IMG/VR virus record: IMGVR_UViG_3300028024_000013
Location: 1-52,313 of that record
DNA: 52,313 nt
Strand: one strand, 5' to 3'
DNA from: a virus
Part shown: piece after piece, positions 247 to 31,163 of the stretch
How the letters are laid out: the number at the start of each line of letters is the position of its first letter
Position numbering within the stretch: position 1 is the first letter of the stretch
Made by a program: the position numbers and the translations under genes
The notes under the pieces: generated by a model
Databases searched by the model: none
What the model saw: only the letters and a program-made list of their open reading frames with translations
What the model was told of the DNA's origin: nothing

Positions 247-1014
247 CTATCTGAATGCCGTGGCCAGTGCCTGTCTCATGGCCAGTGCGAACTCGAGCTT
301 GAACCGGCTACGTGCAGCCTGGTCAGCCACCTCAAAGAATCGCAATCGTCTGCGATATGACGCCCTGCTCACGAAGAGGAATACGGGCTTGATGCTCGAG
401 CCGAATCCGAACTCTGTCCTGACGTAGATCCCGGGCTTCAGCTTCTGGGTACGTTGCGAGGGTGGCCACGTGGAGAAGTAGAAGGTCGGTCGCTTTGTCC
501 TGCTCCTGCGGCGTCTCAGTCTCGAGCGTGCTGTGGTGTTGGCTGTGGCATCGAACTGGGCCTGCAGGTCAGAGACGATCTTGGTGAGCTGGGATCTCGG
601 AACATTCCCGTATGCGTCCAGTGGGATCAGCGATGTGGGAACAGCGAACGCATTGGGCGGCATCTTGCCCGCTGCGATCAGCCTTCGCTCGAATCCCTTG
701 CGGGCTCGCTGTCCACCGTAGATCTCGGACTTCAGGAACTTGATCGGGACGATACCCCCGCCGGTGGGGTCATCCTTGATCTTCACCAGTGCCCAGAGCT
801 TGTTCTTCCGGGCGGCCTCGACAAAGGTCGAATTGAGGGTATATCGGGTCGGTCTGTCGAAGACCCGGCCGATTTCCTCGATTACCTTCTGCTGGGCGAA
901 CTTTGCGGTTCGGGTCAGAGCCAGAGCGGTGGCAAACGGCACCTGCTCCCGACCCATGCGGGAGAGGTGGTTCTCGATCTCGTTGATATCGCCCTGGACG
1001 GAGTACTCAAGCAT
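247..1014 (-). CDS. Putative minor tail protein, lambda gpZ-like
   Basis: A 255-residue basic protein. The N-terminal part is helical (roughly residues 10-50), with a VFDRPTRYTL motif. A GGQRARKGFE motif follows, then a segment near residue 165 with many arginines. This pattern recurs in phage structural proteins of the gpZ/virion-morphogenesis type; assignment is by resemblance only. In lambda, Z lies between FII and U. Here that slot has no such gene, and this copy lies at the far end of the genome, as the last gene before cos. It is probably a tail or tail-completion component, co-transcribed with the appendage block. Confidence 0.45.
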   Translation of the reverse strand: MLEYSVQGDINEIENHLSRMGREQVPFATALALTRTAKFAQQKVIEEIGRVFDRPTRYTLNSTFVEAARKNKLWALVKIKDDPTGGGIVPIKFLKSEIYGGQRARKGFERRLIAAGKMPPNAFAVPTSLIPLDAYGNVPRSQLTKIVSDLQAQFDATANTTARSRLRRRRSRTKRPTFYFSTWPPSQRTQKLKPGIYVRTEFGFGSSIKPVFLFVSRASYRRRLRFFEVADQAARSRFKLEFALAMRQALATAFR

Positions 1015-1039
1015 ACTGCCCAGCCCAGGGAGGAAAACA

Positions 1040-1258
1040 GTGAACTGCGAACATCAATTCGTGGCCGTGGAAGAGAGCAAGTCCGTCACCTTTGCAGGCA
1101 TATTCGGTGTCGTTCTGTTCCTGTTCGGCGGAGCGGTCTGCTTTGCCAACGTGATCTTCGGGGCGCTGATCATCGTTCTGGCCATTATCATCAGCATGAG
1201 TGGCCGAAAACGAACCGTCATCAAATGCGCGAAGTGCGGCGAAATCAGCGCTGCCTGA
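1040..1258 (+). CDS. Small two-TM zinc-ribbon-like membrane protein (putative moron)
   Basis: A 72-residue protein on the strand opposite to all its neighbours. The GTG start is preceded by a strong Shine-Dalgarno (AGGGAGG, about 6 bases upstream), which favours a real gene over a shadow. A Cys/His pair lies at the N-terminus (NCEH), two hydrophobic segments cover about residues 17-34 and 38-52, and a C-terminal CAKC pair follows. The Cys pairs could form a split zinc ribbon on one side of the membrane. It converges on the gene ending at 1245, with a 14-bp overlap. Single opposite-strand membrane genes in late regions are typical prophage-expressed cargo; superinfection exclusion is possible but unproven. 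Confidence 0.6.
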   Translation: MNCEHQFVAVEESKSVTFAGIFGVVLFLFGGAVCFANVIFGALIIVLAIIISMSGRKRTVIKCAKCGEISAA

Positions 1259-1715
1259 CCTGAACCATCTGCCGGGCCACTCTCGGACGACCATTGACCA
1301 GCACACTGAACACGACCGTGTAGTCCTGCCCGTCCGTTCCGCCCGTGTAATCCGCAAGCAGATTCGTGAATTCACTCACGATCAGCGAACTCACGCTAAG
1401 GCCCGGGTCAGGTACAGCCGTGGGCGCTGAAATCGGATTCAGACCATTGTCGGCTGCAACCATGCACGTCCATGTCACAGAGCCGTCTATCACCGTTGCC
1501 CCGAGTGTTTTCGGCCATACCGGCTCACGACTGCCGCTTGTGCCGCCATTCGATACGAAGGAAAACCCGTTCCCGCGCGTCGGCCTCACGAATTCCGAGG
1601 CATCGTAAACCTCGTTCGGCCTCCAGATGTTCGCGCAGACCTTGTAGAAGCGCAGGATCACGCTGCGCACCTCTGCAGGGTCTTTCACGATGGGCGGGAA
1701 ACGATGCTCGCTCAT
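1245..1715 (-). CDS. Phage appendage protein with a recurrent Trp-rich module
   Basis: A 156-residue protein with no recognised enzyme motif. Residues about 30-85 follow a pattern seen often in phage fibre-type proteins: an IWRPNEVY segment, a glycine/serine stretch, then DGSVTWTCM. That resembles small carbohydrate-binding modules. The C-terminal 50 residues (GQDYTVVFSVLVNGRPRVARQ) also recur in phage structural genes. The start overlaps the stop of the preceding gene by 4 bp (ATGA), so it is translationally coupled. It is likely a virion surface component; the exact role is unknown. Confidence 0.55.
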   Translation of the reverse strand: MSEHRFPPIVKDPAEVRSVILRFYKVCANIWRPNEVYDASEFVRPTRGNGFSFVSNGGTSGSREPVWPKTLGATVIDGSVTWTCMVAADNGLNPISAPTAVPDPGLSVSSLIVSEFTNLLADYTGGTDGQDYTVVFSVLVNGRPRVARQMVQVRQR

Positions 1716-3842: not shown

Positions 3843-5804
3843 CTAATGAGCATTGGTGCCAAAGATTCTCTGACGCCGTTTACGTGCCTGTGAGGCGCCC
3901 GTTCCCGGTGTCCCAATCGTCCATTGCGGTGACACGCCGTAGGTGTTGAGCGCACTTCCCGCCTTCGTCACACGGAAGTCGTAAATCTGTCCGTTCGAGG
4001 CGTTGCTGCTCGCCTTGAGACACCACTCTATTTCGGTGTAGTCGTCGGTCGTAATGTCGATGGCGGGCGCAGGGTTACTGCTTTCGCACATCTCACCCGC
4101 CACGAAATCCGCCGTTGTCTTGCCACTGGGCGCTGCGAGTTGAGCCGTCGTCGTATCGCTGTCGGCGAACTGCGAGGACAGCGCGAGCTGAATCGGCTTG
4201 TCGATCTGACGCAGCCGGATCATGACCGCAGCACCCGCCGTGTTCGCCGCGTTCGTGCTCGAGGCCGTTGCGGTAAATGTCCCCGCTGCTGAACTCGTGC
4301 CTGATGTCACCGCGTGCTGACACACGATGATGCGACAGTCGTTACCGGTGGAGACCGCAGTATCGGTGTGCTCGGTCAATGCACCATAGGTCATGCCGGT
4401 CTGCGAGAGCGCTTCCGAGGCCCACGTTGCCGTGTCTTCGGATGAGCCAGCCGCTACGAACACCAGATCGCCTGCGGTCACCCCCGGATCGGTGCCGAAC
4501 GTCACACTGAATGCGGTACCCGCACTGTTGTCAGAGCCCGTCGCCGTCGCCGCATCCCAGTTCTTGCCGGTGGTCTTGGTCGAGCGCCAGATCACCGCTC
4601 CACAACTGGTGCCCGAGGTAATCGCGAGCGTCACACTGCCCGATTCGGTCCCGACCGCTTCCCGTCCGAACACCGTGACGCGAATGACGCCCGTGCCCGC
4701 TGCCTCACTGCCCGCACCGCCCGTCACCGTCGCAAGCTGCGTCCAGCCTCCTGCGGGAATCGTAGGCGTTGAGGCATTTGGCCGATTGACCACGGCCATG
4801 AGCAGGTAATCACCTGCCGCTATCGAGGCGGGATATGCAACCGTAGGCGCCGTGGTGCCCGTGTTGGTCGTAGTCCCAATCGTGCCGAACGCGAGCGCAC
4901 CTGCACCGGCGGCTTCGACTTTCGCATAGACCGAATCGCTGGAGAGTTTCGTCTCCAGTTGAAACTGGGTGCTCGCCAGATCGGCCGTCGTATCGATCAG
5001 AAAACGCAGTCGGGTGTTTATTCCCGTCGTTCGCGTGACCGAGGTGTCCTGAGTCGCAAGTGAGGACGCCGCCGTTTCGCTGCCATCATCGGCCCGCCAC
5101 AGAAATCCTTCCTGCGTGGTGGTGGCGCCACCGAATGACCCCGGCGGGGGATCGGATGCCCCGTTGGTGACCGAGCCGCTCGTCGTGAACGTGAACGCAT
5201 TCGGTCCCTGGTCGACCGAGCTCGTATCGTTAAAGTGATGCGAGAAGAGCAGACCCGTCGTGATGACAGGAGCCGTCGCGCTTGCTTCGGCGAGCAGTTC
5301 TGCATTGCTGAATACGCGCGCCCATGCACGGACATGAGCGACTTCACCATTGAGGCTCGTGACCGCCGTCGGATCGGCGAGCTGGCCGATGCGAATGTAG
5401 CGCTGCAGCTGCGAGAGCGCAGTGAAATTCTGCTTCTCGACGAGCGTCGTGTTATCGCCAATGAACCACGTCGTGAGCGGGTTCGCACCCGCCGGACGGG
5501 AGATGGCAATGTAGATCCACGTGTTGATCGGCAGCGGCACGCCCGTGAAGCCGAACCCGCTGCCGTTCGCCGCAGCATCGAACGCGCCCGTGGCGCCTGT
5601 CGTGCCATTGTTGTACGACTCGACGGAGTCAGAACGGCTGTTGCTGAGCTGCGAGAACGAGACGAACGGCTCGAAGCTCGTCCAGTTCACGACCTGCTTG
5701 AACCAGCCCGCGATACACAGCGCATCGGAGGCCGGAGTCAGATCGAACGAAGTCGTCAGGTCAAAGAGAATGTTGGCGCTGGCGCCATTGATACGGACGC
5801 TCAT
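3843..5804 (-). CDS. LamG/concanavalin-like appendage protein
   Basis: A 653-residue protein. The first 210 residues look like a LamG-type jelly roll: CIAGWFKQV, NTWIYIAIS, YIRIGQLAD, GEVAHVRAWARVFSNAEL and LLFSHHFND follow the usual strand order of this fold. Such domains bind sugars or proteins. The remaining 440 residues are Thr/Ser/Ala/Gly-rich beta sequence with several Ig-like stretches (for example GDYLLMAVVN and GDLVFVAAG, which look like an internal duplication about 110 residues apart). The start overlaps the stop of the preceding gene (ATGA). I infer a surface adhesin of the virion. No signal peptide is seen. Confidence 0.6.
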   Translation of the reverse strand: MSVRINGASANILFDLTTSFDLTPASDALCIAGWFKQVVNWTSFEPFVSFSQLSNSRSDSVESYNNGTTGATGAFDAAANGSGFGFTGVPLPINTWIYIAISRPAGANPLTTWFIGDNTTLVEKQNFTALSQLQRYIRIGQLADPTAVTSLNGEVAHVRAWARVFSNAELLAEASATAPVITTGLLFSHHFNDTSSVDQGPNAFTFTTSGSVTNGASDPPPGSFGGATTTQEGFLWRADDGSETAASSLATQDTSVTRTTGINTRLRFLIDTTADLASTQFQLETKLSSDSVYAKVEAAGAGALAFGTIGTTTNTGTTAPTVAYPASIAAGDYLLMAVVNRPNASTPTIPAGGWTQLATVTGGAGSEAAGTGVIRVTVFGREAVGTESGSVTLAITSGTSCGAVIWRSTKTTGKNWDAATATGSDNSAGTAFSVTFGTDPGVTAGDLVFVAAGSSEDTATWASEALSQTGMTYGALTEHTDTAVSTGNDCRIIVCQHAVTSGTSSAAGTFTATASSTNAANTAGAAVMIRLRQIDKPIQLALSSQFADSDTTTAQLAAPSGKTTADFVAGEMCESSNPAPAIDITTDDYTEIEWCLKASSNASNGQIYDFRVTKAGSALNTYGVSPQWTIGTPGTGASQARKRRQRIFGTNAH

Positions 5805-9595: not shown

Positions 9596-9620
9596 AAAAA
9601 GAAAACCCGCCGAAGCGGGT
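9594..9620 (-). terminator. Intrinsic terminator inside the late block
   Basis: On the minus strand a 6-bp stem (ACCCGC/GCGGGT) with a TTCG tetraloop is followed by a T-rich tail (TTTTC then seven T). It sits between the genes at 9658-10068 and 9410-9595. A second weaker hairpin (CCTGC/GCAGG, 9632-9647) lies just upstream. Genes downstream on the same strand would need read-through. Confidence 0.85.
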
Positions 9621-9657
9621 CAGTGAACGAACCTGCAGAGAAGCAGGCAGAGGGATC

Positions 9658-11290: not shown

Positions 11291-12004
11291 TTACGTGCCT
11301 GCCGGGTTCGATCCGGATACGGTTCCGCCCGGAGCGGGCGCCCAGTGGAAGCTGTGTGTCACGAGACCAATCGGAAGTGACCAGTCCGTCACACCTGAAA
11401 AGAGTCGTACGACCGTGATGGAGAACGGCAGCGCCGCCGTCTCGCCGGTCGTATTGATGCCATACACCGTGAACGGGCCGAAATTGCCCCGCACGGTCGG
11501 CGTACCGTTGATCGTCCCCGTCAGTTCATCAAACGTCAGTCCATTGATGGCGGCATCGATGTCCGGCGCGATACGAAACGAAGTTGCGCCCGTGAAGACG
11601 TTGCAGACCTTCGCCGCGATCGTCTGGTCGACCACATACGATTCCGAGGAGATGACTCCTGCGAGAATCGGCGCGATCGGTGAAAAGACAATCAGCGAGC
11701 CGAGATCGCTTGGCGTCGCGAGACCTGATGTCGCCCCGGTCCCGATGAGTTGGATCGCGACACCAACCTGGCTCGTCGAGCCTGATGGCGTGCCGGACAG
11801 GACCCCCGCCGAGAAAGTGAGCCCGAGTCCAGCGAAGGTCCCAGGCGTCGCCTCCGTGACGTTGACGACTTCCTCGTCGGACTGCCAGCGCGCGTTGAAA
11901 TCGATCGGCGGGATGGCCACGCCCTGCTGAAACGTGATCGTCGCTAAGTCAGGTCCGATGAAGCGAGGCGCGAGACCGGATATGCCCCAAACGACATCGG
12001 CCAT
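11291..12004 (-). CDS. Protein with putative Ig-type (He_PIG-like) domains
   Basis: A 237-residue protein. Two stretches fit the He_PIG/cadherin-like signature: LGLTFSAGVLSGTPSG near residue 60 and INGLTFDELTGTINGTPTV near residue 165. Two or more beta-sandwich domains in tandem are therefore likely. No signal peptide or TM segment is seen. It follows the large exported beta-helix gene at one base spacing and may form a stalk or adaptor with it; that link is inference. Confidence 0.6.
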   Translation of the reverse strand: MADVVWGISGLAPRFIGPDLATITFQQGVAIPPIDFNARWQSDEEVVNVTEATPGTFAGLGLTFSAGVLSGTPSGSTSQVGVAIQLIGTGATSGLATPSDLGSLIVFSPIAPILAGVISSESYVVDQTIAAKVCNVFTGATSFRIAPDIDAAINGLTFDELTGTINGTPTVRGNFGPFTVYGINTTGETAALPFSITVVRLFSGVTDWSLPIGLVTHSFHWAPAPGGTVSGSNPAGT

Positions 12005-12005
12005 T

Positions 12006-15000
12006 TCACTGCACAGCCCCGCGGTTCTTCCACACTACGCCACGCGATCCGTCATCGTTCGTCGTCATGAGCCAGATCGGACTGTTCACCACCCGCGTCA
12101 CGCTCGTCTGCACGGTGATGACTCCGGTCAGGGGGTTGCCACCGTCCGCAATCTGCGTGGGGTTGCACTCGGTGACCTTGGATGTCGCCGCAGGACCGAC
12201 GCAAATCCAGTCGCCGTATTCCCGATGGAGTCCGCCCCACGTATAGGATGCCATGCCGTAGTCGTCCTTCATGACGAAGGGATCGGCGACCGTGAACGAT
12301 GTCCCGCTACCCACCGCGGAGACTTTCGTGATCGGCGCGGCATCACCAAGGCCAACCGTATTCGTCGGCGAGAGCGCCAGGCCGGCCCTGCTCGGGACGG
12401 GGGTAGTCGTGCCGTTCGCGAACTTCAGCGGCGTGAGCGTGTTGTTGCAGACGTTCGCTGGCCACTTCGTGCAGTCGGCCCACGAGACCGTGCCCGAACC
12501 ATTGCCGCCGAGCGAGAATTGAGCCGCGGTGCCAGGCCCGCTTGCGATGTTGTAGTCGTAGACCGAGTCCCGCCAGTCATTGGCGTACGTGCCCTTGCCC
12601 AGCACGGTCATGTTCTTCTTGATCCATGGCACGGTCGTCGAGCCACTGTTGCGACCGTCGAGCATGCCCATGAAGATGTTGTTCCGGAGCAGCACTCCGG
12701 AGCAGTTGCGCGTGTCGGCGTTCGTCGGAAATGACACGTCGAGATCCGTCGGGAAAATCCCGGCGTGGCCGTACATCGTGTTGTTGTAGATCTTCTGCTG
12801 GCCAATCGTGTACGGCAGCACCGAATTTGCAGAGCCGAATGACAGTCCGCAGGTCGTCGACATGGACGCAACCGGGGATGTGATCTGCTTGTTGTAGAAG
12901 TAATTGCCCCGGACGATGACGCCGATGCCCCAGAGCTCCATGGAGTAGTTCCACGTCCTGCGCTCGCCGTCTGCGCCGGCGTCGTACATCTCGTTGTCTT
13001 CGACGGTCACCGGCCCGTAGGCTGCTGGAAAGGCAATCGAGCCGTGGACCTGATCGTGATTGCCGGCGCCTACTTCGAGCGTGTGATTGCCACGGGCCGT
13101 CGGATTGCGGGGCGGCACATCGGCGAAGTCACCCCAGTAGTTCGAGACCACATTCCGCCGCGCCACCTGCCATGGGCCGCGCAACATCAGGGTCTTGTGC
13201 CCCCCGCGCCGGAAGATTGAATCGATGACGACCGAGTGATGCGAGCCGAAGAAGAAGAGATCGCCCGAGTCATCCTTGTTGTAGGTGCCATCGGCGAACA
13301 GCCCCTGGTTGGCGCCGTGGTCGTAGCCCTCGACGTTCTTCACCAGCATGTAGCCGGAATCCTGAAAGATGTCGTTGGCCGTAAATCCATTACCCGTGCC
13401 GCCGCCGTGCCAGGTCTGGTTGATGAAGGCGATGTGCGAGGACTGACGCACCAGCAGCGCATGGCGGTTGGTATAGCAGTTGAAGATCGGCGCCGTGTTG
13501 TTGCGAGCACAGCCGATGTTGAACTGCGAGTGATCCCCGAGCCTCAAGCCGGTGCGATCCTCGAGGCCCCCGTCCACAATCCAGTAATGGCAATTGGTCC
13601 AGTCGCTGATGCCCTTGTCGTTGCCGGCATCGGAACTGAAGATGATGTGATCGCCCTGACGGACACGGACCGTAATCTCGTGGCCTGCCGTGCCACTCAC
13701 GCCGTTGCAGACGAGCTTCGGCCAGATCTCGGTCGCCCCGGGAACCGTCGTGCGCAGCTCGAGAATGTCATCGGGCACCCGCTGCGAAATCGCAGCCGTC
13801 GCGAGCTGCAGGTCGGTGTAGTTGCAGCCGACCCGGCACGCGGTATGCGTCGGGTCCGGAATGGTGTCCGGGGGTTTGTCGCACTCCGGGCAAGAATCCC
13901 GGAAGCCACCGCTGGCCGCAATCTGCACCTGATTCTGACCCGTGCGGGATGCTGCAAGCGATTTCCAGCCCGTCCCGTCATTCCAGCGCCAGGCGAACAA
14001 GGAGACCGCCGTGGGAATATGGAACCGGCCGTTGGTCTCTATCGTGAAATCCTGCACGCCCGAGCCGTTCTTGCAGCCTGCCCCCGGGGTGCGGGTAACC
14101 GTCCGGACATGGACCTGACTGTTGCTCGTGAGGTCATTGGCCGGATTCGAATCGCCGAACCGGTTGACGTGACCTGAAGCGGTCGAGAATGGAATCAGCG
14201 TCCCGAGATCGAAGTAACACTCCCCTGTCGGCGCATCGATAGTAACGGCCTTGCTCGCGACCGTACCGACATTCGTCGTCACCCTGACTGACCGCGATCC
14301 GAAACGGCAGTTGCCCTGAACCGCATCCACCTGGATATCGGTCGCAGACCACGAGTCCACGGTGAACGTCGAGGTCATGGCGCCGTCGACGCACTGGACG
14401 CTGCCCGTGCCCTGACTCGCACCGAACCCCGTCCCGATGACGTGCAGGTTCGTTTCCGTGGAGGTCAGGACGTTGTCGCCCGAGACGCTCGTGATCGCCG
14501 GGGCGCCCCCGCCCGAAGCTTTCAGGAAGATCATTACCGAGTTCTGCGTGGAGACACTCGGATTGCCGGTGATCAGCAGGTCCTGCTGGGCAATCGCGGT
14601 CAGCGTCGTCTGGATCGAATACGCGACCGCCATCGCGTTCGAACCGAAGGCGGCGTCTGCCGTCTCGGTGAAGTTCGGCGCAACCGCAACGCTCGTCCAC
14701 GTGTTGTTCGAGCGGCCAACGTAAATTGCCGCTTCATTCGCCGCGGTCGGTGTCAGCGCCGGGATGCGAAAGGCAGTCTGTGAACTCGCGTTCGCCGTGT
14801 TCGAGACATCCACGACCGAGGCGATGTTGGTCGTATCGACACCGCGGAAGACCAGACACTGCGCCTGCAGCGTCGTCGTAGTGCCGGGGTTGACGGTAGG
14901 ATTGGCGTCAGATCCCGCCGCAATGTGACCGTAGAGCTTCGTGCTGATGCCATTGGCGGCGAGCTCTGTGAATCCTGAAGGCGTCGGAACGGTGCCCGAC

Positions 15001-15170
15001 CCGTCGAACTCGATAGCGACGATCCGCAGGTCGTTGGCTATCGCGGCCGGGCAGACGACAGTCTTCGTCGTCCCCGTATTCGATTGCATGACGGCGCCAG
15101 AACCCACAAAGGTAATGGCCGCCAGCGCCCATCCGGGCGATAGCAGGATGAGCGCAAGCAGATAGCGCAA
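12006..15170 (-). CDS. Large right-handed beta-helix protein with Sec signal peptide
   Basis: A 1,054-residue protein from the TTG at 15170. That start is preferred because GAGG lies 6 bases upstream and it yields a clean signal peptide (MRYLLALILLSPGWALA, cleavage after ALA). A longer TTG start at 15203 would lie inside the terminator hairpin. After about 220 beta-type residues comes an IPT/TIG-like domain (about 235-330). A Cys-rich linker follows, then, from about residue 460 (GCNYTDLQLATAAI), a parallel beta-helix region of the pectate-lyase/NosD type. There are about 20 cysteines, which suits an oxidising compartment. It is the first gene after Q and its terminator. Sec export is unusual for a virion protein; it may be a secreted or surface protein carried by the phage, or a spike with an unusual assembly route. 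Confidence 0.7.
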   Translation of the reverse strand: MRYLLALILLSPGWALAAITFVGSGAVMQSNTGTTKTVVCPAAIANDLRIVAIEFDGSGTVPTPSGFTELAANGISTKLYGHIAAGSDANPTVNPGTTTTLQAQCLVFRGVDTTNIASVVDVSNTANASSQTAFRIPALTPTAANEAAIYVGRSNNTWTSVAVAPNFTETADAAFGSNAMAVAYSIQTTLTAIAQQDLLITGNPSVSTQNSVMIFLKASGGGAPAITSVSGDNVLTSTETNLHVIGTGFGASQGTGSVQCVDGAMTSTFTVDSWSATDIQVDAVQGNCRFGSRSVRVTTNVGTVASKAVTIDAPTGECYFDLGTLIPFSTASGHVNRFGDSNPANDLTSNSQVHVRTVTRTPGAGCKNGSGVQDFTIETNGRFHIPTAVSLFAWRWNDGTGWKSLAASRTGQNQVQIAASGGFRDSCPECDKPPDTIPDPTHTACRVGCNYTDLQLATAAISQRVPDDILELRTTVPGATEIWPKLVCNGVSGTAGHEITVRVRQGDHIIFSSDAGNDKGISDWTNCHYWIVDGGLEDRTGLRLGDHSQFNIGCARNNTAPIFNCYTNRHALLVRQSSHIAFINQTWHGGGTGNGFTANDIFQDSGYMLVKNVEGYDHGANQGLFADGTYNKDDSGDLFFFGSHHSVVIDSIFRRGGHKTLMLRGPWQVARRNVVSNYWGDFADVPPRNPTARGNHTLEVGAGNHDQVHGSIAFPAAYGPVTVEDNEMYDAGADGERRTWNYSMELWGIGVIVRGNYFYNKQITSPVASMSTTCGLSFGSANSVLPYTIGQQKIYNNTMYGHAGIFPTDLDVSFPTNADTRNCSGVLLRNNIFMGMLDGRNSGSTTVPWIKKNMTVLGKGTYANDWRDSVYDYNIASGPGTAAQFSLGGNGSGTVSWADCTKWPANVCNNTLTPLKFANGTTTPVPSRAGLALSPTNTVGLGDAAPITKVSAVGSGTSFTVADPFVMKDDYGMASYTWGGLHREYGDWICVGPAATSKVTECNPTQIADGGNPLTGVITVQTSVTRVVNSPIWLMTTNDDGSRGVVWKNRGAVQ

Positions 15171-15187
15171 AGTTAGCCTCGTATATG

Positions 15188-15214
15188 AAAACGCCCCGCG
15201 CAAAGGCGAGGCGT
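15188..15214 (-). terminator. Intrinsic terminator between Q-like gene and late block
   Basis: On the minus strand a 9-bp stem (ACGCCTCGC with GCGGGGCGT, one G-U pair) is followed by TTTTC. It lies 19 bases after the stop of the Q-like gene and just before the first late gene. This matches the position of lambda tR', which Q overcomes. The T-tract is short, so strength is uncertain. Confidence 0.7.
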
Positions 15215-15232: not shown

Positions 15233-15793
15233 TCAGCCGGTAACGGTCAGCTTCGTTCGATTGAGGGCCGTAAGGTTAAGATCGGCCGGGGAGAATTTCG
15301 GCAGCGTAGCCGTAATGGACTGCTTTGTAGCGGATTCTCTGCGCAGTGGCAAGCTCGCATCACATGCAGTCGGATCGAGCCTGGCAAATACCCAGAACTC
15401 GGCGCGGCCAACAGCCTCCCAGAACACGCGCTCCTTCATGCCGATGATCTTCGCCCGGTCTGACCACGACAGGTTGAACTCGGGGTCCCAGACGTACTTG
15501 ACGTGTATCGCGTCGTAGGTGCTCTCAGGCATGCCAACGAGCGCACGCTGCACTTCGAGTCCGTCACCGAAATAGACTTCGGCCCACCGTTGAGCTGACG
15601 CGCCTGACTGCCCGGCTGCCACACGTTCGTCGAGGATGCGGCCCATGAAGCTCTCAGAGTAGCCGTCGATGTGCCGGCGAATCGCACCCTGACTATTCAC
15701 GTACGTGTCACGACCTTGCCAGATGCGACGCTTCTGCCGGCCCCAGCGATTGCAGGCAAGGCGGACCCACTCCGGAATATCGCTACGGCTCAT
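15233..15793 (-). CDS. Putative Q-type late antiterminator
   Basis: A 186-residue protein. The N-terminal segment EWVRLACNRWGRQKRR resembles the Trp-rich opening of many phage Q/antitermination proteins. Residues about 80-145 (RALVGMPESTYDAIHVKYVW, then a helix-turn-helix pattern ending RAEFWVFARL) resemble the sigma-70 region-4-like domain of those proteins. The last 40 residues are Thr/Leu-rich and unlike the family. It sits last in the leftward early operon and directly ahead of a terminator and the late genes, as lambda Q does. It would let RNA polymerase read the late operon through its internal terminators. Confidence 0.65.
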   Translation of the reverse strand: MSRSDIPEWVRLACNRWGRQKRRIWQGRDTYVNSQGAIRRHIDGYSESFMGRILDERVAAGQSGASAQRWAEVYFGDGLEVQRALVGMPESTYDAIHVKYVWDPEFNLSWSDRAKIIGMKERVFWEAVGRAEFWVFARLDPTACDASLPLRRESATKQSITATLPKFSPADLNLTALNRTKLTVTG

Positions 15794-20121: not shown

Positions 20122-20309
20122 TTGCTGCAACGGGACATCCCGTACGGTCTGCCGGCTGTTCCTAAAAGAGAACAACCGCGGCAAGAAAGTGGGAGTAATC
20201 TCCGGATCGCGGGGCTCAGAACAAAGACCAAAGGCCCAAATCAGAGGATTACGTCCAAATGAGCACACGGATCGTTCGCCCTCGCAGATACTCAAGACAG
20301 AACAAGAAC

Positions 20310-20504
20310 TCAGGCTGCGTAGTTCGACAGCAGCTTGTCCGCAGAGAGCCCTGTTACCTTGGTGATGCGCTTCAGAGTTTCCACAGACGGCAGGTGCCGC
20401 CCGTTCTCGATATCGCAGTACGTCGGCTGGCTGATGGAAAGACGTCGGGCAAGTTCTGCCTGCGTCAGCTTCGCGCGAGCGCGGTAGGACTTCAGGGCGA
20501 TCAT
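20310..20504 (-). CDS. Cro/CI-type HTH regulator (64 aa)
   Basis: A 64-residue HTH_3 protein: LTQAELARRLSISQPTYCDI is a standard helix-turn-helix, and the protein is little more than this domain. It is transcribed leftward, divergently from the HTH gene at 20583-20918, with operator repeats in between. It heads the early-left operon. By size and position it is the Cro-like partner, though which of the two maintains lysogeny cannot be told from sequence. Confidence 0.75.
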   Translation of the reverse strand: MIALKSYRARAKLTQAELARRLSISQPTYCDIENGRHLPSVETLKRITKVTGLSADKLLSNYAA

Positions 20505-20528
20505 ATGGCTGTCGACTCTATCGGAATC

Positions 20529-20549
20529 ACCTATTCAAATGCAATAGGT
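20529..20549. promoter_or_regulatory. Operator-like inverted repeat between divergent regulators
   Basis: ACCTATT, seven bases, AATAGGT: a perfect 7-bp inverted repeat in the 78-bp gap between the divergent HTH genes. Related half-sites (GCCTAT/ATAGGC) recur at the early rightward promoter near 20985. A weak leftward promoter (TTGCAT, then GATAGA) overlaps this repeat. Confidence 0.7.
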
Positions 20550-20582
20550 CACTTCGATTCGGCCTTCCAGCATGCTTTAGGC

Positions 20583-20918
20583 ATGCCCAAACCACTGCGT
20601 TCCGTCTACGAGAGAGCCATGGAGGCGCTCGCGGAACGGCACCCCGGCCAGAAACCCACACAGGGACGGCTGGCGGCCATTGCCGGCGTGAAGCAGCCCT
20701 CGGTCAACGACTGGAAGGACGGCTATCCCGCCATGGATACGGCGGTCCGCCTGGCTACCGGTCTGGGGGTTTGTGTGGAGTGGCTGCTGACCGAACGCGG
20801 TCCGAAACACCCTCCCGCGGCCGACAATTCCGTGCTCGCCCTGCTCCTGAGTCAGCTCGATAACCGTCAAAAAGCCCGTCTCGCGCGCCTCGCGGAAGTC
20901 CTTAAAGACACTGAATAA
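20583..20918 (+). CDS. HTH repressor-like protein (111 aa)
   Basis: A 111-residue protein from the ATG at 20583. Residues about 26-50 (GRLAAIAGVKQPSVNDWKDG) form an HTH_3 domain, and CVEWLLTERG follows as in many CI/prophage repressors. The C-terminal part is a short helical tail, not a LexA/S24-type peptidase, so RecA-driven self-cleavage is not expected. The start lies in paired palindromes (AGCATGCT and GGCATGCC). It is a candidate lysogeny repressor, facing operators on both sides of its gene. Confidence 0.7.
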   Translation: MPKPLRSVYERAMEALAERHPGQKPTQGRLAAIAGVKQPSVNDWKDGYPAMDTAVRLATGLGVCVEWLLTERGPKHPPAADNSVLALLLSQLDNRQKARLARLAEVLKDTE

Positions 20919-20968
20919 TCCATACCCGACGTGGACGGCTTGTCACTTCGAGAAAAATAATCGGTTTT

Positions 20969-21002
20969 GCCTATTGCTTTACTGATAGGCGCGGCCTATA
21001 GT
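20969..21002 (+). promoter_or_regulatory. Early rightward promoter with overlapping operators
   Basis: A -35-like TTGCTT (20974-20979) and -10 TATAGT (20997-21002) are separated by 17 bases. Three half-sites overlap it: GCCTAT at 20969, ATAGGC at 20985 and GCCTAT at 20994, giving two overlapping inverted repeats. The similarity to the repeat at 20529-20549 indicates one repressor acts at both. It would drive the 21-33 kb operon. Confidence 0.65.
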
Positions 21003-21039
21003 TCTCTCACGCTCCACTACCGGAGCGGGGAGAGCCGGG

Positions 21040-21189
21040 ATGTCACAGCGAGTAGAACGAGCGTTGCTACTGGCGGTTCTGCTGGGTGCGGCGGCGCTAT
21101 GGATGGCGTTATGGACCCTGTGCGGCCATGAACGCTCGCAGCCGCCCTCGACCTCGTACCTGCCGGCTCAGACGGAGGGCGCGCGATGA
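21040..21189 (+). CDS. Small single-TM protein, first gene of early-right operon
   Basis: A 49-residue protein with GGGGAG 9 bases before its ATG. A hydrophobic helix covers about residues 8-28 (ALLLAVLLGAAALWMALWTL), followed by a short polar tail. The stop overlaps the next start (ATGA). It is the first product from the early promoter; the role is unknown. Confidence 0.6.
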   Translation: MSQRVERALLLAVLLGAAALWMALWTLCGHERSQPPSTSYLPAQTEGAR

Positions 21190-21800
21190 GCACGCTTTCC
21201 GGACAGAGCAATACCGCCTCGCTGAATGTTCTCGTGGCCTGCGAGTTCAGCGGTACGGTTCGCGAAGCCTTCCGCGCGCTCGGCCACAACGCGTGGTCCT
21301 GTGACCTGCTCCCGAGCGAGATTCCCGGCCCGCACTTCCACTGCGATGTGCGAACCGTGCTCGCCACCAGTTCGTGGGACCTGCTAGTGGCTCACCCGCC
21401 CTGCACTCATCTCGCCGTGAGTGGTGCGCGCTGGTTCAAGGGCAAGGAGCGCGAGCAGGCTGAGGCGCTCGAGTTCGTACGCGAGCTGATGAACGCGCCC
21501 ATCGAGCGCATCGCCATCGAGAACCCGGTGAGCGTCATCAGCTCACGCATTCGCAAGCCTGATCAGATCGTTCAGCCCTTCCACTTTGGCGACCCGTACC
21601 GCAAGACGACGTGCCTGTGGCTGAAGAACCTGCCGCAGCTCGATCGTACCAGCGGCATGATGACCGGCGACCAGAAGTGCTGGAAGGAACCGCCCTCGCC
21701 TGATCGCTGGAAGATTCGCTCGCGCACGTATCCCGGCTTCGCTGCAGCAATGGCGTTGCAGTGGGGTGGTGATGCTCGCCAGGCGCAGGAGGCTGCATGA
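21186..21800 (+). CDS. C5-cytosine methyltransferase-like protein
   Basis: A 204-residue protein. LNVLVACEFSGTVREAF (about 13-29) is a SAM-binding motif I. AHPPCTHL (Pro-Pro-Cys at 71-73) carries the catalytic cysteine loop, and ENP at 112-114 is motif VI. It is much shorter than bacterial Dcm enzymes and lacks a normal target-recognition domain, like many phage-encoded homologues. It could methylate or otherwise mark phage DNA. It overlaps both neighbours by 4 bp. Confidence 0.7.
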   Translation: MSTLSGQSNTASLNVLVACEFSGTVREAFRALGHNAWSCDLLPSEIPGPHFHCDVRTVLATSSWDLLVAHPPCTHLAVSGARWFKGKEREQAEALEFVRELMNAPIERIAIENPVSVISSRIRKPDQIVQPFHFGDPYRKTTCLWLKNLPQLDRTSGMMTGDQKCWKEPPSPDRWKIRSRTYPGFAAAMALQWGGDARQAQEAA

Positions 21801-22178
21801 ACAGCTCACACACCGTGAGTGCGTCGCCGTGGCGTCACGCAATCAATCGTGATGAAACCCGCTACCTGATCATCGATGCGGCCAAACGCTCGATAGCCGG
21901 AGGTCGACTGGCATTCGAGCAACCCAAAATACTTTCCGCTCAGGCCAGAAGCGGAGGCCAACGCGCGTCTGATAGCGGCGGCTCCCGAGTTGCTCGAAGC
22001 GCTGCAGGTCTACGTAGCCTACGACGAATACGTCAACGGTCCCGAAGGCGATCCAGAGACGAATCGGCTCCAGAAAGCGAAGGCCGCAATCGCCAGCGCG
22101 CTGGGTCACAAGTCGGATGAACAGCGCTGCACCTTCCCGGACTGCTCGCACAAAGACGTCACGGAGTGTGGCAAGTGA
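21797..22178 (+). pseudogene. Early protein gene broken by a +1 frameshift
   Basis: The start frame (from 21797) gives a normal N-terminus ending near RYLIIDAAKRSIA, then turns Arg/Ser-rich. The downstream frame, from just after a TAG at 21894, gives a typical phage sequence (SNPKYFPLRPEAEANARLIA and on to residue 62 of the frame ending 22178). Removing one G in the run near 21897-21902 joins them into a 126-residue protein with a short Cys/His tail. The EAEANARLIAAAPELL motif is common in early phage proteins of unknown function. A sequencing error, a recent mutation or recoding at the GGAGGT there are the possible causes. Confidence 0.7.
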
Positions 22179-22351
22179 AGATCGTCACCGCGCACTTCCT
22201 GCCGCCGATCCCGCTGCATATCGCGCGCAACTACCAGTGGACGGCCACGCTGGACAACTACGAGCCCGGCCACCCTATCGGCTTTGGCTGCTCGGAACAG
22301 GAAGCCATCGACGACCTGAAGGAACTGCTCTTGGAGACGGCTGATGAATAA
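22175..22351 (+). CDS. Small early protein (58 aa)
   Basis: A 58-residue protein with a GTG start overlapping the previous stop (GTGA). Pattern: KIVTAHFLPPIPLHIARNYQ, then an acidic helical tail (EQEAIDDLKELLLE). It resembles short early phage proteins of unknown role. The preserved coupling to the frameshifted gene suggests the indel upstream is recent. Confidence 0.6.
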   Translation: MKIVTAHFLPPIPLHIARNYQWTATLDNYEPGHPIGFGCSEQEAIDDLKELLLETADE

Positions 22352-22700
22352 GCCCACTGAGTTCGCGTATCGCGCCGTTCTTCGGGACCTCGCGCACAAC
22401 GAGCCGCGCCACGGTTACGAGAGCTACGCCGACTTCGACCTCACGACCGAGCAGACCGCAACCGTCGTCAGGCACTTCCCTGAGATCGTAGGCGAGGCGC
22501 TCGCCGACCTCCCCATGCAGTTCGCCCTGGTACTCGAATCGCCAACTGCAGAGGCGTGCACGCTGTTCTGCTCGCTGCTGAACGAGCAATGCAGGCACGA
22601 GGCGAAGAAATACATCCTGAGCGACCTGCAGACCGAATGCGAAGAGAAGCGCAGGGACGCCCAGCTCGAAGACTTCCATAACAGACGGGGTGTTTTATGA
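22344..22700 (+). CDS. Hypothetical early protein (118 aa)
   Basis: A 118-residue, largely helical acidic protein (TEQTATVVRHFPEIVGEALA; EEKRRDAQLEDFHNRR). Two Cys lie near residue 75. No known domain, TM segment or signal. It overlaps both neighbours by 4-8 bp within the coupled early-right chain. Confidence 0.55.
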   Translation: MNKPTEFAYRAVLRDLAHNEPRHGYESYADFDLTTEQTATVVRHFPEIVGEALADLPMQFALVLESPTAEACTLFCSLLNEQCRHEAKKYILSDLQTECEEKRRDAQLEDFHNRRGVL

Positions 22701-22882
22701 CCGCCAGAGTATTCCCGATTTCCAAGCTTCTTGGCATGCGTCAGGACAACTACGCGCAGTCCGAGATCAACCGCATCGACAACAAGATCGCGGCGAACGA
22801 GCGAACAATCGGCGAGCTCGCTCACGCGAACTGGCTGCTGCGGCTCGAACGCACGCAGTACGAGGAAGACCTCCGTGGCTGA
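22697..22882 (+). CDS. Small helical early protein (61 aa)
   Basis: A 61-residue protein, mostly one long charged helix (EINRIDNKIAANERTIGELA and on), probably a coiled coil. No recognised family. ATGA and GTG overlaps on both sides support expression. Confidence 0.55.
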   Translation: MTARVFPISKLLGMRQDNYAQSEINRIDNKIAANERTIGELAHANWLLRLERTQYEEDLRG

Positions 22883-23132
22883 GATGCGTTCTGACGATCC
22901 GGTGAATGGCTACCAGATCGAGGACGGCATCCCGCCGCCTAGCGCGCGAGGCAAAGCCAACGGCATTACTAACGTGATCCGTAAATTGCAGATTGGGCAA
23001 AGTGTGCTCTTTTCGCAATACAAGCACTCGAATCAGGTCAGCACACTCCGTCGCACAGTCGAGAAGGAAACCGGCTGTAAGACCATCGCCAGAAAGGTCG
23101 ATGGCGGCGTGCGAATCTGGAGGCTTTCATGA
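22875..23132 (+). CDS. Small early protein (85 aa), possibly nucleic-acid binding
   Basis: An 85-residue protein with a GTG start overlapping the previous gene; an ATG at 22884 is an alternative. A disordered front (IEDGIPPPSARGKANG) leads into a basic region (IRKLQIGQSVLFSQYKHSNQ, then TLRRTVEKETGCKTIARKV). This layout is frequent in small phage proteins whose C-terminal region may bind DNA. No specific function is assigned. Confidence 0.55.
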   Translation: MAEMRSDDPVNGYQIEDGIPPPSARGKANGITNVIRKLQIGQSVLFSQYKHSNQVSTLRRTVEKETGCKTIARKVDGGVRIWRLS

Positions 23133-23350
23133 CCAATGACCAGCGCCTCGCGCAGTTGAAAGGGCTTTTGACCCCGGTCGAGTGGGAATACCTAAAGGAC
23201 TGGCACAAGAACGCGCAGCTGTGGTGCGACCAGACCGATGATTTCATTGGCGCACGGATGCACCGCGATCGATTCAGAGAGATGGACGGATACGACAAGA
23301 AGGTTCGTGACGCGCTGTCCGCACTAGATCGCCTCGGAGAGAAGTCATGA
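23129..23350 (+). CDS. Small early protein (73 aa)
   Basis: A 73-residue helical protein with Trp-rich centre (VEWEYLKDWHKNAQLWCDQT) and charged C-terminus. No domain is recognised. Coupled by ATGA overlaps to both neighbours. Confidence 0.55.
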   Translation: MTNDQRLAQLKGLLTPVEWEYLKDWHKNAQLWCDQTDDFIGARMHRDRFREMDGYDKKVRDALSALDRLGEKS

Positions 23351-23718
23351 GCATGCAGGCAAACCAGAACGTCGGCCACGGGCACGTATTCCCGCGCCCT
23401 GACGGTGTGAAGGCGCGCTGCGGTGGCCCGGTCATTTGCGCCGAGTGCGCTCGTGACGCTGCACGCAAGGCGGTACAAGACAGCGGCGAGCTTCTGGCTG
23501 CTGTCGAGCTGCCGCCGGGCAACAAAGATGAGCCGCCCATCACATTCGAGGCGCTGAGCTATGCGCTCTTCAGTCTCGACGACAACGCCGTACTCACGAC
23601 CGCGCACGGCAATCTCGCGATCTTCAGCACGAAGGGCATGGCGGAACTCTGGGCGAAGTCATCGAAGCGACGCATTCGCGTGGTTCCCGTGCAGGTAACT
23701 CCGAGGACCGAGCAATGA
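23347..23718 (+). CDS. Early protein with possible zinc site (123 aa)
   Basis: A 123-residue protein. ARCGGPVICAECARDAARKA gives three Cys in the pattern C-x7-C-x2-C, with His residues before it, a plausible zinc site. The C-terminal half is mixed alpha/beta (FEALSYALFSLDDNAVLTTA). No family is recognised. Coupled to neighbours by 4-bp overlaps. Confidence 0.5.
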   Translation: MSMQANQNVGHGHVFPRPDGVKARCGGPVICAECARDAARKAVQDSGELLAAVELPPGNKDEPPITFEALSYALFSLDDNAVLTTAHGNLAIFSTKGMAELWAKSSKRRIRVVPVQVTPRTEQ

Positions 23719-24179
23719 GCGATGTTCCGTTCACCTCAAAGAATGACCTCACTCTGGTGAGTGGCCTCACGAAGCTGGGGAATGGCGAAGGCAAGTCGTG
23801 GGTGACGCTGACCGAGGCCGAGGCGGCAGCAGTGTGCGCTGAACTGTCCAAGCTTCACTCCGAACACCTCGAAGATATCGAGCGCATGGACCGGGCGGCG
23901 ACCGCGATGGAAGCCTACCAAGCTGAGATCAAGCGATTAAGTGCTGTCGAGACGAGAGCAACTCCAGAGCGGCTGAACATCACCGTGAGCGGACAGCCTG
24001 ATTTCAGCGGCATCGAGCATCCGGAATGCTGGACCGGTCTGAGCGTCAATGGACACGAGCACGCCATTCTGGTCGTCACACGCATGGAAGACGGCACGGA
24101 GGTCAAGCATGCGCCGGCAGTGATCGCGCTGCTCACAGGATTTCCGGAGAAAACATCCGGTTCCGGAGCGCCGACATGA
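23715..24179 (+). CDS. Hypothetical early protein (154 aa)
   Basis: A 154-residue protein. The first 80 residues include a helix (LTEAEAAAVCAELSKLHSEH), probably a coiled coil. The rest is beta-type (LNITVSGQPDFSG; AILVVTRMEDGTEV). No catalytic motif, TM segment or signal is visible. Overlaps both neighbours by 4 bp. Confidence 0.5.
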   Translation: MSDVPFTSKNDLTLVSGLTKLGNGEGKSWVTLTEAEAAAVCAELSKLHSEHLEDIERMDRAATAMEAYQAEIKRLSAVETRATPERLNITVSGQPDFSGIEHPECWTGLSVNGHEHAILVVTRMEDGTEVKHAPAVIALLTGFPEKTSGSGAPT

Positions 24180-24358
24180 CTCACCTGTCATGGCAAGCCG
24201 GCGCCCTGCTGTTCTGCGGCCTCTTCCTGCTATGGGTCGTGACATTCCTGATCCTCAACGAACTCGACAAGCGCAAGCCTTTGCCGAAGACGCCGAAGGA
24301 CGAGCGTATGTGGTCGATCAATTACATGACGGACTTCAAAAGGTGGACTGAGCGATGA
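24176..24358 (+). CDS. Small single-TM early protein (60 aa)
   Basis: A 60-residue protein with one TM helix (about residues 8-27, AGALLFCGLFLLWVVTFLIL) and a basic cytoplasmic tail. It lies immediately before bet, with ATGA overlaps at both ends. The role is unknown. Confidence 0.6.
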   Translation: MTHLSWQAGALLFCGLFLLWVVTFLILNELDKRKPLPKTPKDERMWSINYMTDFKRWTER

Positions 24359-25251
24359 ACGCGGTTGTCGAACACAAAGACCTGCCCGCCCCCGTCGCCC
24401 GTCGAGGCATCGACGAGGCAGCCTGGCGGACGGCAATGAACAGCCTGTTCCCCGGGGCGAAGGCCGAATCGGTGCTGATGGTCTTCGACTACTGCAAGGC
24501 GCGGAAGCTCGATCCGCTCAAGAAGCCGTGCCACATCGTGCCGATGAGCGTGAAGATCGGCGGCGAGTACGTGACGCGTGACGTAGTGATGCCGGGCATC
24601 TACGAGTACCGCACGACGGCGATGCGCACCGGGCAGTACATGGGCCACTCGAAGCCCGAGTACGGCCCCGAGATCGAGTTCCTTGGCGTGAAGGCGCCTG
24701 AGTGGTGCGCGCTGACCGTGTACCGCTGGAACGCCGCATCCGCGAGCCGTACTGAGTTCCCTGTGATGGTCTACTTCTCGGAGTGCGTCGCAACGAAGAA
24801 GGACTACAAGACCAAGGAAGTCACGATCAACGAGCGCTGGACCAAGGCGCCGCGCCAGATGCTGACGAAGTGCACCGAGGCGGCTGGCCTTCGAGAAGCC
24901 TTCCCAGACGAACTGGGCGGCGAGCACACGGCCGAAGAGATGGACGGCCAGTTTTCGCAAACCGAGGAAGTGAGCATAACGCCAAAGGGCGACGTCAATC
25001 CTCGAGGTGACCTGTCCGGCGTCGACTGGGAGCTGCGCGACAAGGCGGTGTCCGAGATCGTGGACATCCTGAACTGCGACAAGGAAGAGCACGAGATTGC
25101 AGCGATGCTGCGCGAGTTCGAAGCGACCCGGTTGATGCCTTTCCACGAGCTCTACATCACGGTGCTCGACAAGCTGGCGGGTGACGGAATCATCTCAAAG
25201 GCGAAGTTCAAGGAGTACCTGAAGATTCACCAGAGGCCCGAGGGTCGCTGA
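24355..25251 (+). CDS. bet: Bet/RecT-type single-strand annealing recombinase
   Basis: A 298-residue protein. The core (about residues 20-205) shows family motifs: ARKLDPLKKPCHIVPMSVKI, RDVVMPGIYEYRTTAMRTGQ, WCALTVYR, RWTKAPRQMLTKCTEAAGLR and AFPDELGGEHTAEEM. This is the Red-beta (Bet) branch of annealing recombinases, which pair complementary strands during recombination-linked replication. No lambda Exo or YqaJ exonuclease gene is visible anywhere in the genome, so a host nuclease or an unrecognised gene must supply resection. RusA at 16.1 kb could resolve the products. Confidence 0.85.
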   Translation: MNAVVEHKDLPAPVARRGIDEAAWRTAMNSLFPGAKAESVLMVFDYCKARKLDPLKKPCHIVPMSVKIGGEYVTRDVVMPGIYEYRTTAMRTGQYMGHSKPEYGPEIEFLGVKAPEWCALTVYRWNAASASRTEFPVMVYFSECVATKKDYKTKEVTINERWTKAPRQMLTKCTEAAGLREAFPDELGGEHTAEEMDGQFSQTEEVSITPKGDVNPRGDLSGVDWELRDKAVSEIVDILNCDKEEHEIAAMLREFEATRLMPFHELYITVLDKLAGDGIISKAKFKEYLKIHQRPEGR

Positions 25252-25252
25252 C

Positions 25253-25669
25253 ATGAAACTCTGGCTCGCCAAGGTGCGGCGCGACGACAAGATCGGGCTC
25301 ATCCCCACTGACGACTTGTCGCGCGCCGTCCTTGGCAGGATGGGCGATGGTGAGTGCTGCCAGGTCGAGATCGTCCGGCCGCGGTCGGTCCAGTGGCACC
25401 GGATGTACTTCGGGATCTGCCGCGAGATCGGCAAGAACCAAGACCCCGAGGTAGACGAAAGCACCATAGACCATCGCCTGCGCGTGCTGGCCGGTCACTA
25501 CGACACGATCTGGGTCGATGGCTTCGAAGTGCGCATCCCCAAGCGCATCGCCTTCCACAAGCTCTCTGGCGACCAATGGGCTGAGTTGTGGCCGTCGCTC
25601 GAGCTGGCGATCAACGAGCACTACGGGGAGGGCTACGTTGAGCAAGCTCACAAAACAGGCACGTGGTGA
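25253..25669 (+). CDS. DUF1367-like early protein
   Basis: A 138-residue protein one base after bet. PRSVQWHRMYFGICREIGKN and the following segments resemble the DUF1367/NinB-like proteins found near recombination genes; the family call is by motif impression. The gene continues 32 bp into the next gene. A DNA-metabolism role with Bet is inferred from position. Confidence 0.5.
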   Translation: MKLWLAKVRRDDKIGLIPTDDLSRAVLGRMGDGECCQVEIVRPRSVQWHRMYFGICREIGKNQDPEVDESTIDHRLRVLAGHYDTIWVDGFEVRIPKRIAFHKLSGDQWAELWPSLELAINEHYGEGYVEQAHKTGTW

Positions 25670-25964
25670 GGATTGTCAGGTGCGCCAGCCGCTCATCTGC
25701 AACCACGACCGCGAGACCACCGTGTGCGCTCACGTGCGCATGATTGGTTACAGCGGCATGGGCATGAAGGCGAACGATTGGTTCACGGCCTTTGCGTGCT
25801 CGGCGTGCCACGACTGGATCGATGGCCGATCTCCGTCAATAGATAGCTACGAGACGCGGAGACTTGCGCACCTTGAAGCAGTGCTGCGCACCCAGGCAAT
25901 TCGCCTGCAACGACAGCATCTTCTGTCCGAAGCACTTGTTGTACAGAACACGGAGAACACATGA
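25638..25964 (+). CDS. DUF1364-type (HNH-like) nuclease domain protein
   Basis: A 108-residue protein with a TTG start at 25638, preceded by GGGGAGGG. ICNHDRETTVCAHVRMIGYS (about 19-38), GMGMKAND and FACSACHDWIDGR match the DUF1364 family, a small metal-binding HNH-like nuclease group common in lambdoid early regions. The Cys/His pairs are all present. It may process recombination intermediates with Bet. Confidence 0.7.
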   Translation: MSKLTKQARGEDCQVRQPLICNHDRETTVCAHVRMIGYSGMGMKANDWFTAFACSACHDWIDGRSPSIDSYETRRLAHLEAVLRTQAIRLQRQHLLSEALVVQNTENT

Positions 25965-26275
25965 CTTTTCCAGCTATCCCAAAGACGTGCAGTCCGCAGC
26001 AGGCGAAGTTCCTGCGTGACCGGCTGAGCAACACGCGAGCGCCATACGTGCGCGGCACGTGGCGCAACCGAGACAAGGAGCCGAAGGAGATTCGCTCGGC
26101 TCGCAAGCTCATAGAGCGCTGGGAGATAGCCGAACGCAAGAAGGATAACGCCAACGTGCGCCGATTTACGGAGGCCGAAGAGACCGCTCGCAAGGCGATT
26201 CTGTTCAAGCCGCCTGAGATCGCCCTCGCGGCTGTCGAGGCTTACGAAAAGCTCTGCCGGGACGCGAAGGCTTAG
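25961..26275 (+). CDS. Basic hypothetical early protein (104 aa)
   Basis: A 104-residue, highly basic, helical protein (PQQAKFLRDRLSNTRAPYVR; KLIERWEIAERKKDNANVRR). No known domain. The basic charge suggests nucleic-acid contact. It overlaps the nuclease gene by 4 bp and ends 48 bp before csrA. Confidence 0.5.
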   Translation: MTFPAIPKTCSPQQAKFLRDRLSNTRAPYVRGTWRNRDKEPKEIRSARKLIERWEIAERKKDNANVRRFTEAEETARKAILFKPPEIALAAVEAYEKLCRDAKA

Positions 26276-26323
26276 ACCTGCCGTCATGACCTCCGGAAAG
26301 CCTATAAACCAAGGAGAAGGAAG

Positions 26324-26527
26324 ATGCTCATACTCACAAGACGGACTGGCGAGACGATCATGATCGGCGACGAAGTGACGCTGACGGTGTTGGGTGTCAA
26401 AGGCAACCAGGTGCGGCTTGGGATCAACGCGCCGAAGAGCGTGCCGGTACACCGTGAAGAGATCTACGAACGCATCAAGCGCGAGTTGCGGGGCGACGTG
26501 ACTGACAACGTGACAGGAACACGATAG
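26324..26527 (+). CDS. csrA: CsrA/RsmA-family RNA-binding regulator
   Basis: A 67-residue protein with a strong ribosome site (AAGGAGAAGGAAG before the ATG). [20 protein letters not shown] is the CsrA N-terminal signature, and [12 protein letters not shown] carries the RNA-contact Arg44; Leu4 is also conserved. CsrA dimers bind GGA motifs in mRNA leaders and change translation or stability. Full length and intact key residues argue for activity. In a phage it could retune host carbon storage, motility, biofilm or virulence programmes, or regulate phage messages. Confidence 0.92.
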
Positions 26528-26531
26528 CGCC

Positions 26532-27086
26532 ATGAAACTGGCTGGGTTCCGCTGCGGCCATCCGTACACACCAGAGAACATGGTCACTGTTCGTGGGCGC
26601 TTCCATTATTGCCGTCTCTGCAACCGACAGCGCGCCAACCGCCGCTATCGAAGCTTGAACCCGGGCGCGAAACAGAGATCCTATCTCACGCTCGATGACA
26701 AGCTATTGGCGCTGGTGAAGAAAACCCCAAGTCACTGGCTGTGGCAAGGCCCAATGCGCGATGGATCGCAGGCGGTGTGCACGCACGACAATGAATTCTA
26801 TTCCGTCGTACAAGTTTTTTGGGAGCGCGAGAACGGTCCAGTGCCTGACCGTAACTGTCTGTATCGAATCTGCACGATGTCGCGTTGTGTGCGGCCTCAA
26901 TGCCACTCGCCAGCAATTCGCGGCGCGCACCTGGTTGGCAGCGCGCGCGGGGTGCGCGGCAAGCCCATAGACCATATTTCAGAAGGCAGAGGCCGTCCGA
27001 TTTACGGGATGAGCCCAGAGGCCGCAGCCCTGCTCGGGTTGATCGACGACGAGCAATATCTCAGTCGCTATAAGGGGATTTCATGA
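26532..27086 (+). CDS. HNH-like zinc protein, catalytic His apparently lost
   Basis: A 184-residue protein. The N-terminus (GFRCGHPYTPENMVTVRGRF, then HYCRLCNRQRANRRY) is the zinc motif common in phage HNH proteins. The C-terminal half follows the HNH pattern WLWQG, FWERENGPVP, then C-x4-CVRP-x-CH. In canonical versions a His precedes the first Cys of that block; here the matching sequence reads LYRIC. That suggests a binding protein or inactive nuclease. The region is only four bases from csrA. Confidence 0.6.
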   Translation: MKLAGFRCGHPYTPENMVTVRGRFHYCRLCNRQRANRRYRSLNPGAKQRSYLTLDDKLLALVKKTPSHWLWQGPMRDGSQAVCTHDNEFYSVVQVFWERENGPVPDRNCLYRICTMSRCVRPQCHSPAIRGAHLVGSARGVRGKPIDHISEGRGRPIYGMSPEAAALLGLIDDEQYLSRYKGIS

Positions 27087-27337
27087 GTCCGCTGAGCACC
27101 GAAACGGTGACGTTCGATTTGAGCGAAGGCAACGAATGGGGTCGAGCGGTGTATGCCGCTCACGGAGGCCCGGAGCCCGGCAAGCCGCTAGAGGTGAACG
27201 GATGCCTAACGCCACTCCCAGAGGTGGGCAACACGCTGCTCGTCAAAGGCGGTGAACTATGGAAATTCACACGCGTGAAGTACTGGCACAACCCGCGTGA
27301 CGCATTCGAGGGGACTTTGGAGCGTATCAATGGCTGA
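27083..27337 (+). CDS. Hypothetical early protein (84 aa)
   Basis: An 84-residue beta-type protein (TFDLSEGNEWGRAVYAAHGG; GNTLLVKGGELWKFTRVKYW). No recognised motif. Coupled by overlaps of 4 and 8 bp to its neighbours. Confidence 0.55.
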   Translation: MSPLSTETVTFDLSEGNEWGRAVYAAHGGPEPGKPLEVNGCLTPLPEVGNTLLVKGGELWKFTRVKYWHNPRDAFEGTLERING

Positions 27338-27783: not shown

Positions 27784-27785
27784 AT

Positions 27786-27956: not shown

Positions 27957-27960
27957 CCTC

Positions 27961-28188: not shown

Positions 28189-28195
28189 GCGAGAC

Positions 28196-28369: not shown

Positions 28370-28383
28370 ATGGGACGGTGAAC

Positions 28384-29597: not shown

Positions 29598-29599
29598 CT

Positions 29600-29815: not shown

Positions 29816-29816
29816 C

Positions 29817-31107: not shown

Positions 31108-31163
31108 GAACCACAGCGGAGCATGAATGAACACTCACGAAGGCCGGAGGCGATTGCTGAAAG

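What the first reader, a model, noticed from the sequence alone, without database searches (positions are those of the whole stretch)
12006..15170. Late phage beta-helix protein with a Sec signal peptide and about 20 cysteines
A clean signal peptide (ALA cleavage) with a good ribosome site at the TTG start is unusual for a virion fibre, which must stay in the cytoplasm to assemble. High Cys content suits export. It may be a secreted depolymerase or surface adhesin delivered late in infection, or displayed by lysogens if transcribed from its own promoter.
Basis: partly seen in the sequence, partly recalled or inferred. Interest (0 to 1): 0.75.

Follow-up and report, generated by a model that had tools for sequence, protein, structure and literature searches.

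The report
Exported phage late protein, tail-like domains
A temperate bacterial virus places, at the head of a late gene cluster, a large protein that resembles a virus attachment protein but carries an export signal, so it is probably sent out of the infected cell's cytoplasm rather than built directly into the virus particle; a related virus carries a different exported protein in the same place.

Summary
On the minus strand, TTG 15170 to 12006 encodes 1054 aa. A GAGG ribosome site precedes the start, and the 17-residue leader (MRYLLALILLSPGWALA^AIT) scores highest of 1,333 possible starts in the window, by a heuristic calibrated on E. coli. The mature part has exactly 20 Cys: about 2.5 times the rate of other genes on this strand, grouped in ten short-range pairs. 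"Beta-helix" was not confirmed: no family match, no usable AlphaFold model, no detectable repeats. New: the only relative found (Maribacter phage Panino CDS0098, residues 18-314, about 28% identity) has no leader, and its first residues after Met are the same AIT that follows the predicted cut. So an export signal appears to sit in front of a phage attachment-type domain. The gene follows a terminator directly and is one base from a string of virion-like genes. In a related contig (portal 81% identical) the same slot, also behind terminators, holds an unrelated signal-peptide protein. Best reading: a Sec-exported, probably disulfide-bonded late protein acting outside the cytoplasm; target and any enzyme activity unknown. 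A fibre that is exported and then joins virions is not excluded. No relative was found in bacterial genomes, plasmids or IMG/VR.

The parts
12006..15170 (-). Target gene, 1054 aa, TTG start at 15170
   Evidence: Open frame and ribosome site; codon use like the other phage genes
15120..15170 (-). Predicted Sec/SPI signal peptide MRYLLALILLSPGWALA
   Evidence: Heuristic score 4.06, calibrated on E. coli proteins
14226..15119 (-). N-terminal phage attachment-type region (residues 18-315), its second part IPT/TIG-like
   Evidence: About 28-29% identity to Panino CDS0098 residues 2-312, E = 3e-8; TIG E = 0.073, below the curated cut-off
13824..14225 (-). Cys-rich linker region with CPEC and CRVGC (residues 316-449)
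   Evidence: Sequence; no family match
12531..13823 (-). Region that looks beta-helix-like to the eye (residues 450-880), not confirmed
   Evidence: No support
12006..12530 (-). C-terminal region with four Cys
   Evidence: Sequence
15185..15214 (-). Intrinsic terminator directly upstream of the ribosome site
   Evidence: 10-bp stem with TTTT tail
15233..15793 (-). Gene in the place where a late antiterminator would be expected (downstream of a RusA-like gene); identity not shown
   Evidence: Position only; no match
11291..12004 (-). Next gene, Ig-like (He_PIG), 1 base after the target's stop
   Evidence: Pfam PF05345 E = 7.7e-5, just below cut-off
9604..9621 (-). Terminator closing the first five-gene stretch
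247..1715 (-). Head decoration-like gene (1245-1715) and minor tail protein (247-1014) further downstream
   Evidence: phrog_20658 E = 4e-9; phrog_1924 E = 1e-71

Best explanation
The gene encodes a precursor that the host Sec pathway exports and signal peptidase I trims after ALA, leaving a mature protein that starts AITFVG (inferred). In the oxidising periplasm up to ten disulfides form (inferred). The phage attachment-type N-terminal region plus a large C-terminal part act outside the cytoplasm, on the envelope or, after lysis, in the surroundings, most likely by binding a surface glycan or another envelope part (inferred; target unknown). Its place behind a terminator and ahead of virion-like genes suggests production in the late phase, when an antiterminator lets transcription through (inferred).
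For: Leader score top of the window and within the range of E. coli signal peptides, with no cytoplasmic control above 2.67. The Panino relative has a stop two codons before its ATG, so no room for a leader, and aligns from its second residue with the residue after the predicted cut. Cys excess and pairing; at two of the Cys (40 and 105) Panino has no Cys. Same slot, behind two terminators, in a related contig: GTG 6204, MKRSPWLVLIALAILAPVLARGADVTITC, 4 Cys. A third contig has a relative of that small protein, with a signal peptide, between terminase and a portal-like gene.
Against: No experiment. SignalP could not be run; the score is a home-made rule. Only one relative of the target was found, and it covers the first third. 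The neighbours look like virion genes without leaders, as does Panino's protein, so a virion role is natural. No structure model. Cys 427/430/445/449 could bind metal in the cytoplasm instead.
Confidence: 0.5

Rival explanations
1. A tail fibre or virion attachment protein that is exported for oxidative folding and joins the particle after lysis through its N-terminal domain.
For: N-terminal region shared with a leaderless protein in a virion-like gene string of Panino near its endolysin; the target is one base from virion-like genes that lead to decoration and minor tail genes.
Against: Known tail fibres assemble in the cytoplasm; phage hypervariable (DGR) target proteins were reported to lack signal peptides (PMC6199706). 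Nothing here shows binding to virions.
Confidence: 0.2
2. A surface protein of lysogens (lysogenic conversion), expressed from its own promoter.
For: The phage encodes an integrase and a repressor; export signal.
Against: No sigma-70-like promoter found on the minus strand near the gene; terminator about 11 bases before the ribosome site; tight coupling to the next gene.
Confidence: 0.15
3. An ordinary cytoplasmic virion fibre: the leader is not used, or translation starts inside it (GTG codon 22 or ATG codon 28).
For: Leaderless Panino relative; TTG is a weaker start codon.
Against: The TTG has a good ribosome site, the internal codons do not, and starting there would remove the first residues that align with Panino. 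The leader is the strongest in the window.
Confidence: 0.12

Closest known systems
Maribacter phage Panino CDS0098 (WZE63617.1)
   Same: First 300 residues align from end to end, about 28% identity; lies among large hypothetical genes beside the endolysin
   Different: No signal peptide; 4 Cys; different C-terminal half, paralogous to its neighbour CDS0099
Exported proteins near the late antiterminator in lambdoid phages (DLP12 nmpC; Shiga toxin genes co-transcribed with late genes, PMC8065619)
   Same: Exported product encoded close to the Q gene and late genes
   Different: nmpC is on the opposite strand; unrelated sequences; the Q role of window 15233-15793 is not shown
Lambda Lom and similar exported phage proteins beside tail genes (PMC12309495)
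   Same: Signal peptide on a product of a tail-region gene
   Different: Lom is an outer-membrane barrel; the target is far larger and unrelated
Signal-peptide protein in IMGVR_UViG_3300049791_000122 (L015 6204-6752)
   Same: Same slot behind terminators in a related phage, signal peptide, even number of Cys
   Different: 182 aa, no detectable sequence similarity to the target

Membership tests
Sec/SPI-exported proteins | Charged start, hydrophobic core, A-X-A before the cut | tested here: met
Sec/SPI-exported proteins | Actual cleavage and export | not testable with these tools
   Needs an experiment
Right-handed beta-helix proteins / tailspike depolymerases | Beta-helix fold or family match | tested here: inconclusive
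   No family match; AlphaFold2 failed; no repeats above chance
Right-handed beta-helix proteins / tailspike depolymerases | Depolymerase activity | not testable with these tools
   Needs an assay
Panino CDS0098-type phage attachment proteins | Homologous N-terminal region | tested here: met
   E = 3e-8
Panino CDS0098-type phage attachment proteins | No export signal | tested here: not met
   Leader present in the target
IPT/TIG domain | Score above Pfam's cut-off | tested here: not met
   13.5 bits against 20.9
Independent moron gene | Own promoter and terminator, foreign composition | tested here: not met
   No promoter-like site on this strand; next gene starts 1 base on; codon use like the phage

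The most novel reading that the evidence does not exclude
A tailed phage sends an attachment protein out through Sec, lets it form disulfides in the periplasm, and adds it to particles only when the cell bursts; related phages keep different exported proteins in that same late slot.
Probability: 0.12. Interest if true: 0.8.

Novelty: new variant of a known kind. Interest (0 to 1): 0.45.

Why it matters
Phage attachment domains and export signals are normally kept apart. A leader placed exactly in front of such a domain, and a recurring slot for exported proteins in a late operon, would show that some temperate phages shape the outside of the cell, or its debris, late in infection. A reporter fusion would test it simply.

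Tried and rejected
AlphaFold2 failed twice for want of relatives. An apparent likeness of the N-terminal domain to window 3843-5804 and L015 8607-9368 (GWT motif) was not significant and is dropped. The late-antiterminator identity of 15233-15793 was not supported by sequence. Neighbouring late proteins, and the signal-peptide proteins of the related contigs, gave no match in the phage collection. Foreign origin was rejected on codon use.

Full report
What is there. The window is a 52-kb IMG/VR virus record of a temperate siphophage-like virus: gpA-type terminase, lambda-type portal, protease-capsid fusion, major tail protein, J-like tail protein, spanin and endolysin-like genes on the minus strand; integrase, repressor, NinB, RecT and CsrA-like genes in the 20-33 kb block. 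The target gene runs from TTG 15170 to 12006 on the minus strand.

The leader. MRYLLALILLSPGWALA^AIT has one positive charge, a hydrophobic core and an ALA cut. A simple rule (hydrophobic window, no charges up to the cut, A-X-A preference) was calibrated on E. coli K-12 genes whose location I know from general knowledge: 23 exported 2.38-4.11, 56 cytoplasmic at most 2.67; target 4.06. Among 1,333 start codons of the window with at least 60 codons to a stop, the target scores highest; other loci at 3.5 or more are the Rz-like spanin, a small lipoprotein-like frame at 36579-36794 (+) and one at 1040-1258 (+). The ribosome site GAGG stands at a normal distance before TTG 15170 and not before the upstream TTG 15203.

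The homologue. tblastn of 50,697 phage records gave one relative, Panino CDS0098, residues 18-314 against 2-312, about 28% identity, E = 5e-8 to 3e-8. In Panino a stop codon lies two codons before the ATG, so no leader is possible, and the protein begins M-AIT. The predicted mature target begins AIT. The predicted cut therefore falls exactly at the N-terminus of the leaderless relative, which was not used in choosing the cut.

Cysteines. 20 in 1037 mature residues, against 86 in 10,851 residues of 42 other minus-strand genes (p = 7e-4). Paired in order, the ten pairs span 267 residues in sum; random placement does as well in 1.6% of trials. This fits local disulfides, and is moderate evidence.

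Setting. A 10-bp stem with a T tail ends about 11 bases before the ribosome site. The next gene starts 1 base after the stop. Genes 11291, 10723, 10058 and 9658 follow, then a terminator at 9604-9621, then more virion-like genes ending in a decoration-like gene and a minor tail protein. In contig IMGVR_UViG_3300049791_000122 (portal 81%, capsid 67% identical) the counterparts of these last two genes run straight into TerS and TerL, and at the head of the string, directly behind two strong terminators, stands a 182-aa protein with a signal peptide (score 4.03) and 4 Cys. Its only other relative found also has a signal peptide (score 4.74) and sits between terminase and a portal-like gene (named by eye) in another contig. 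Sequence differs from the target's, slot and export signal agree. Two cases are few.

What is not shown. The beta-helix, the fold of any part, the binding target, enzyme activity, the host, and whether the protein is in virions. The gene upstream occupies the place of a late antiterminator after a RusA-like gene, as in DLP12, but sequence comparison gave no support.

Literature. Exported phage proteins are known: Sec endolysins (PMC6116005), Lom beside tail genes (PMC12309495), exclusion lipoproteins (PMC11893012). Phage hypervariable DGR proteins were reported to lack signal peptides, unlike bacterial surface ones (PMC6199706). I found no paper on a tail-type protein with a Sec leader, in a limited search.

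Verdict. Export probable (about 0.8), disulfides likely (about 0.6), function outside the cytoplasm likely (about 0.5), depolymerase unproved.

Noticed in passing
window 36579-36794 (+): Small frame with a lipobox (MAVKTLPLSILLVMLTGC) on the strand opposite the late genes, next to the J-like tail gene; possibly a surface or exclusion lipoprotein.
   Followed up: partly
L015 6204-6752 (+): Signal-peptide protein behind two terminators at the head of the late string in a related contig; a relative at L017 2400-2795 lies next to terminase.
   Followed up: yes
L015 6704-7348 (+): A frame overlapping the end of that gene looks like an HNH-type homing endonuclease inserted after the signal-peptide gene, judged by eye.
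   Followed up: no
L015 13458-15446 (+): Terminase large subunit only 30% identical to the window's although the portal is 81% identical: sign of module exchange.
   Followed up: no
window 20259-33623: A CsrA-like regulator (PF02599, E = 8.5e-27) in the early region of the phage; exact gene not resolved.
   Followed up: no
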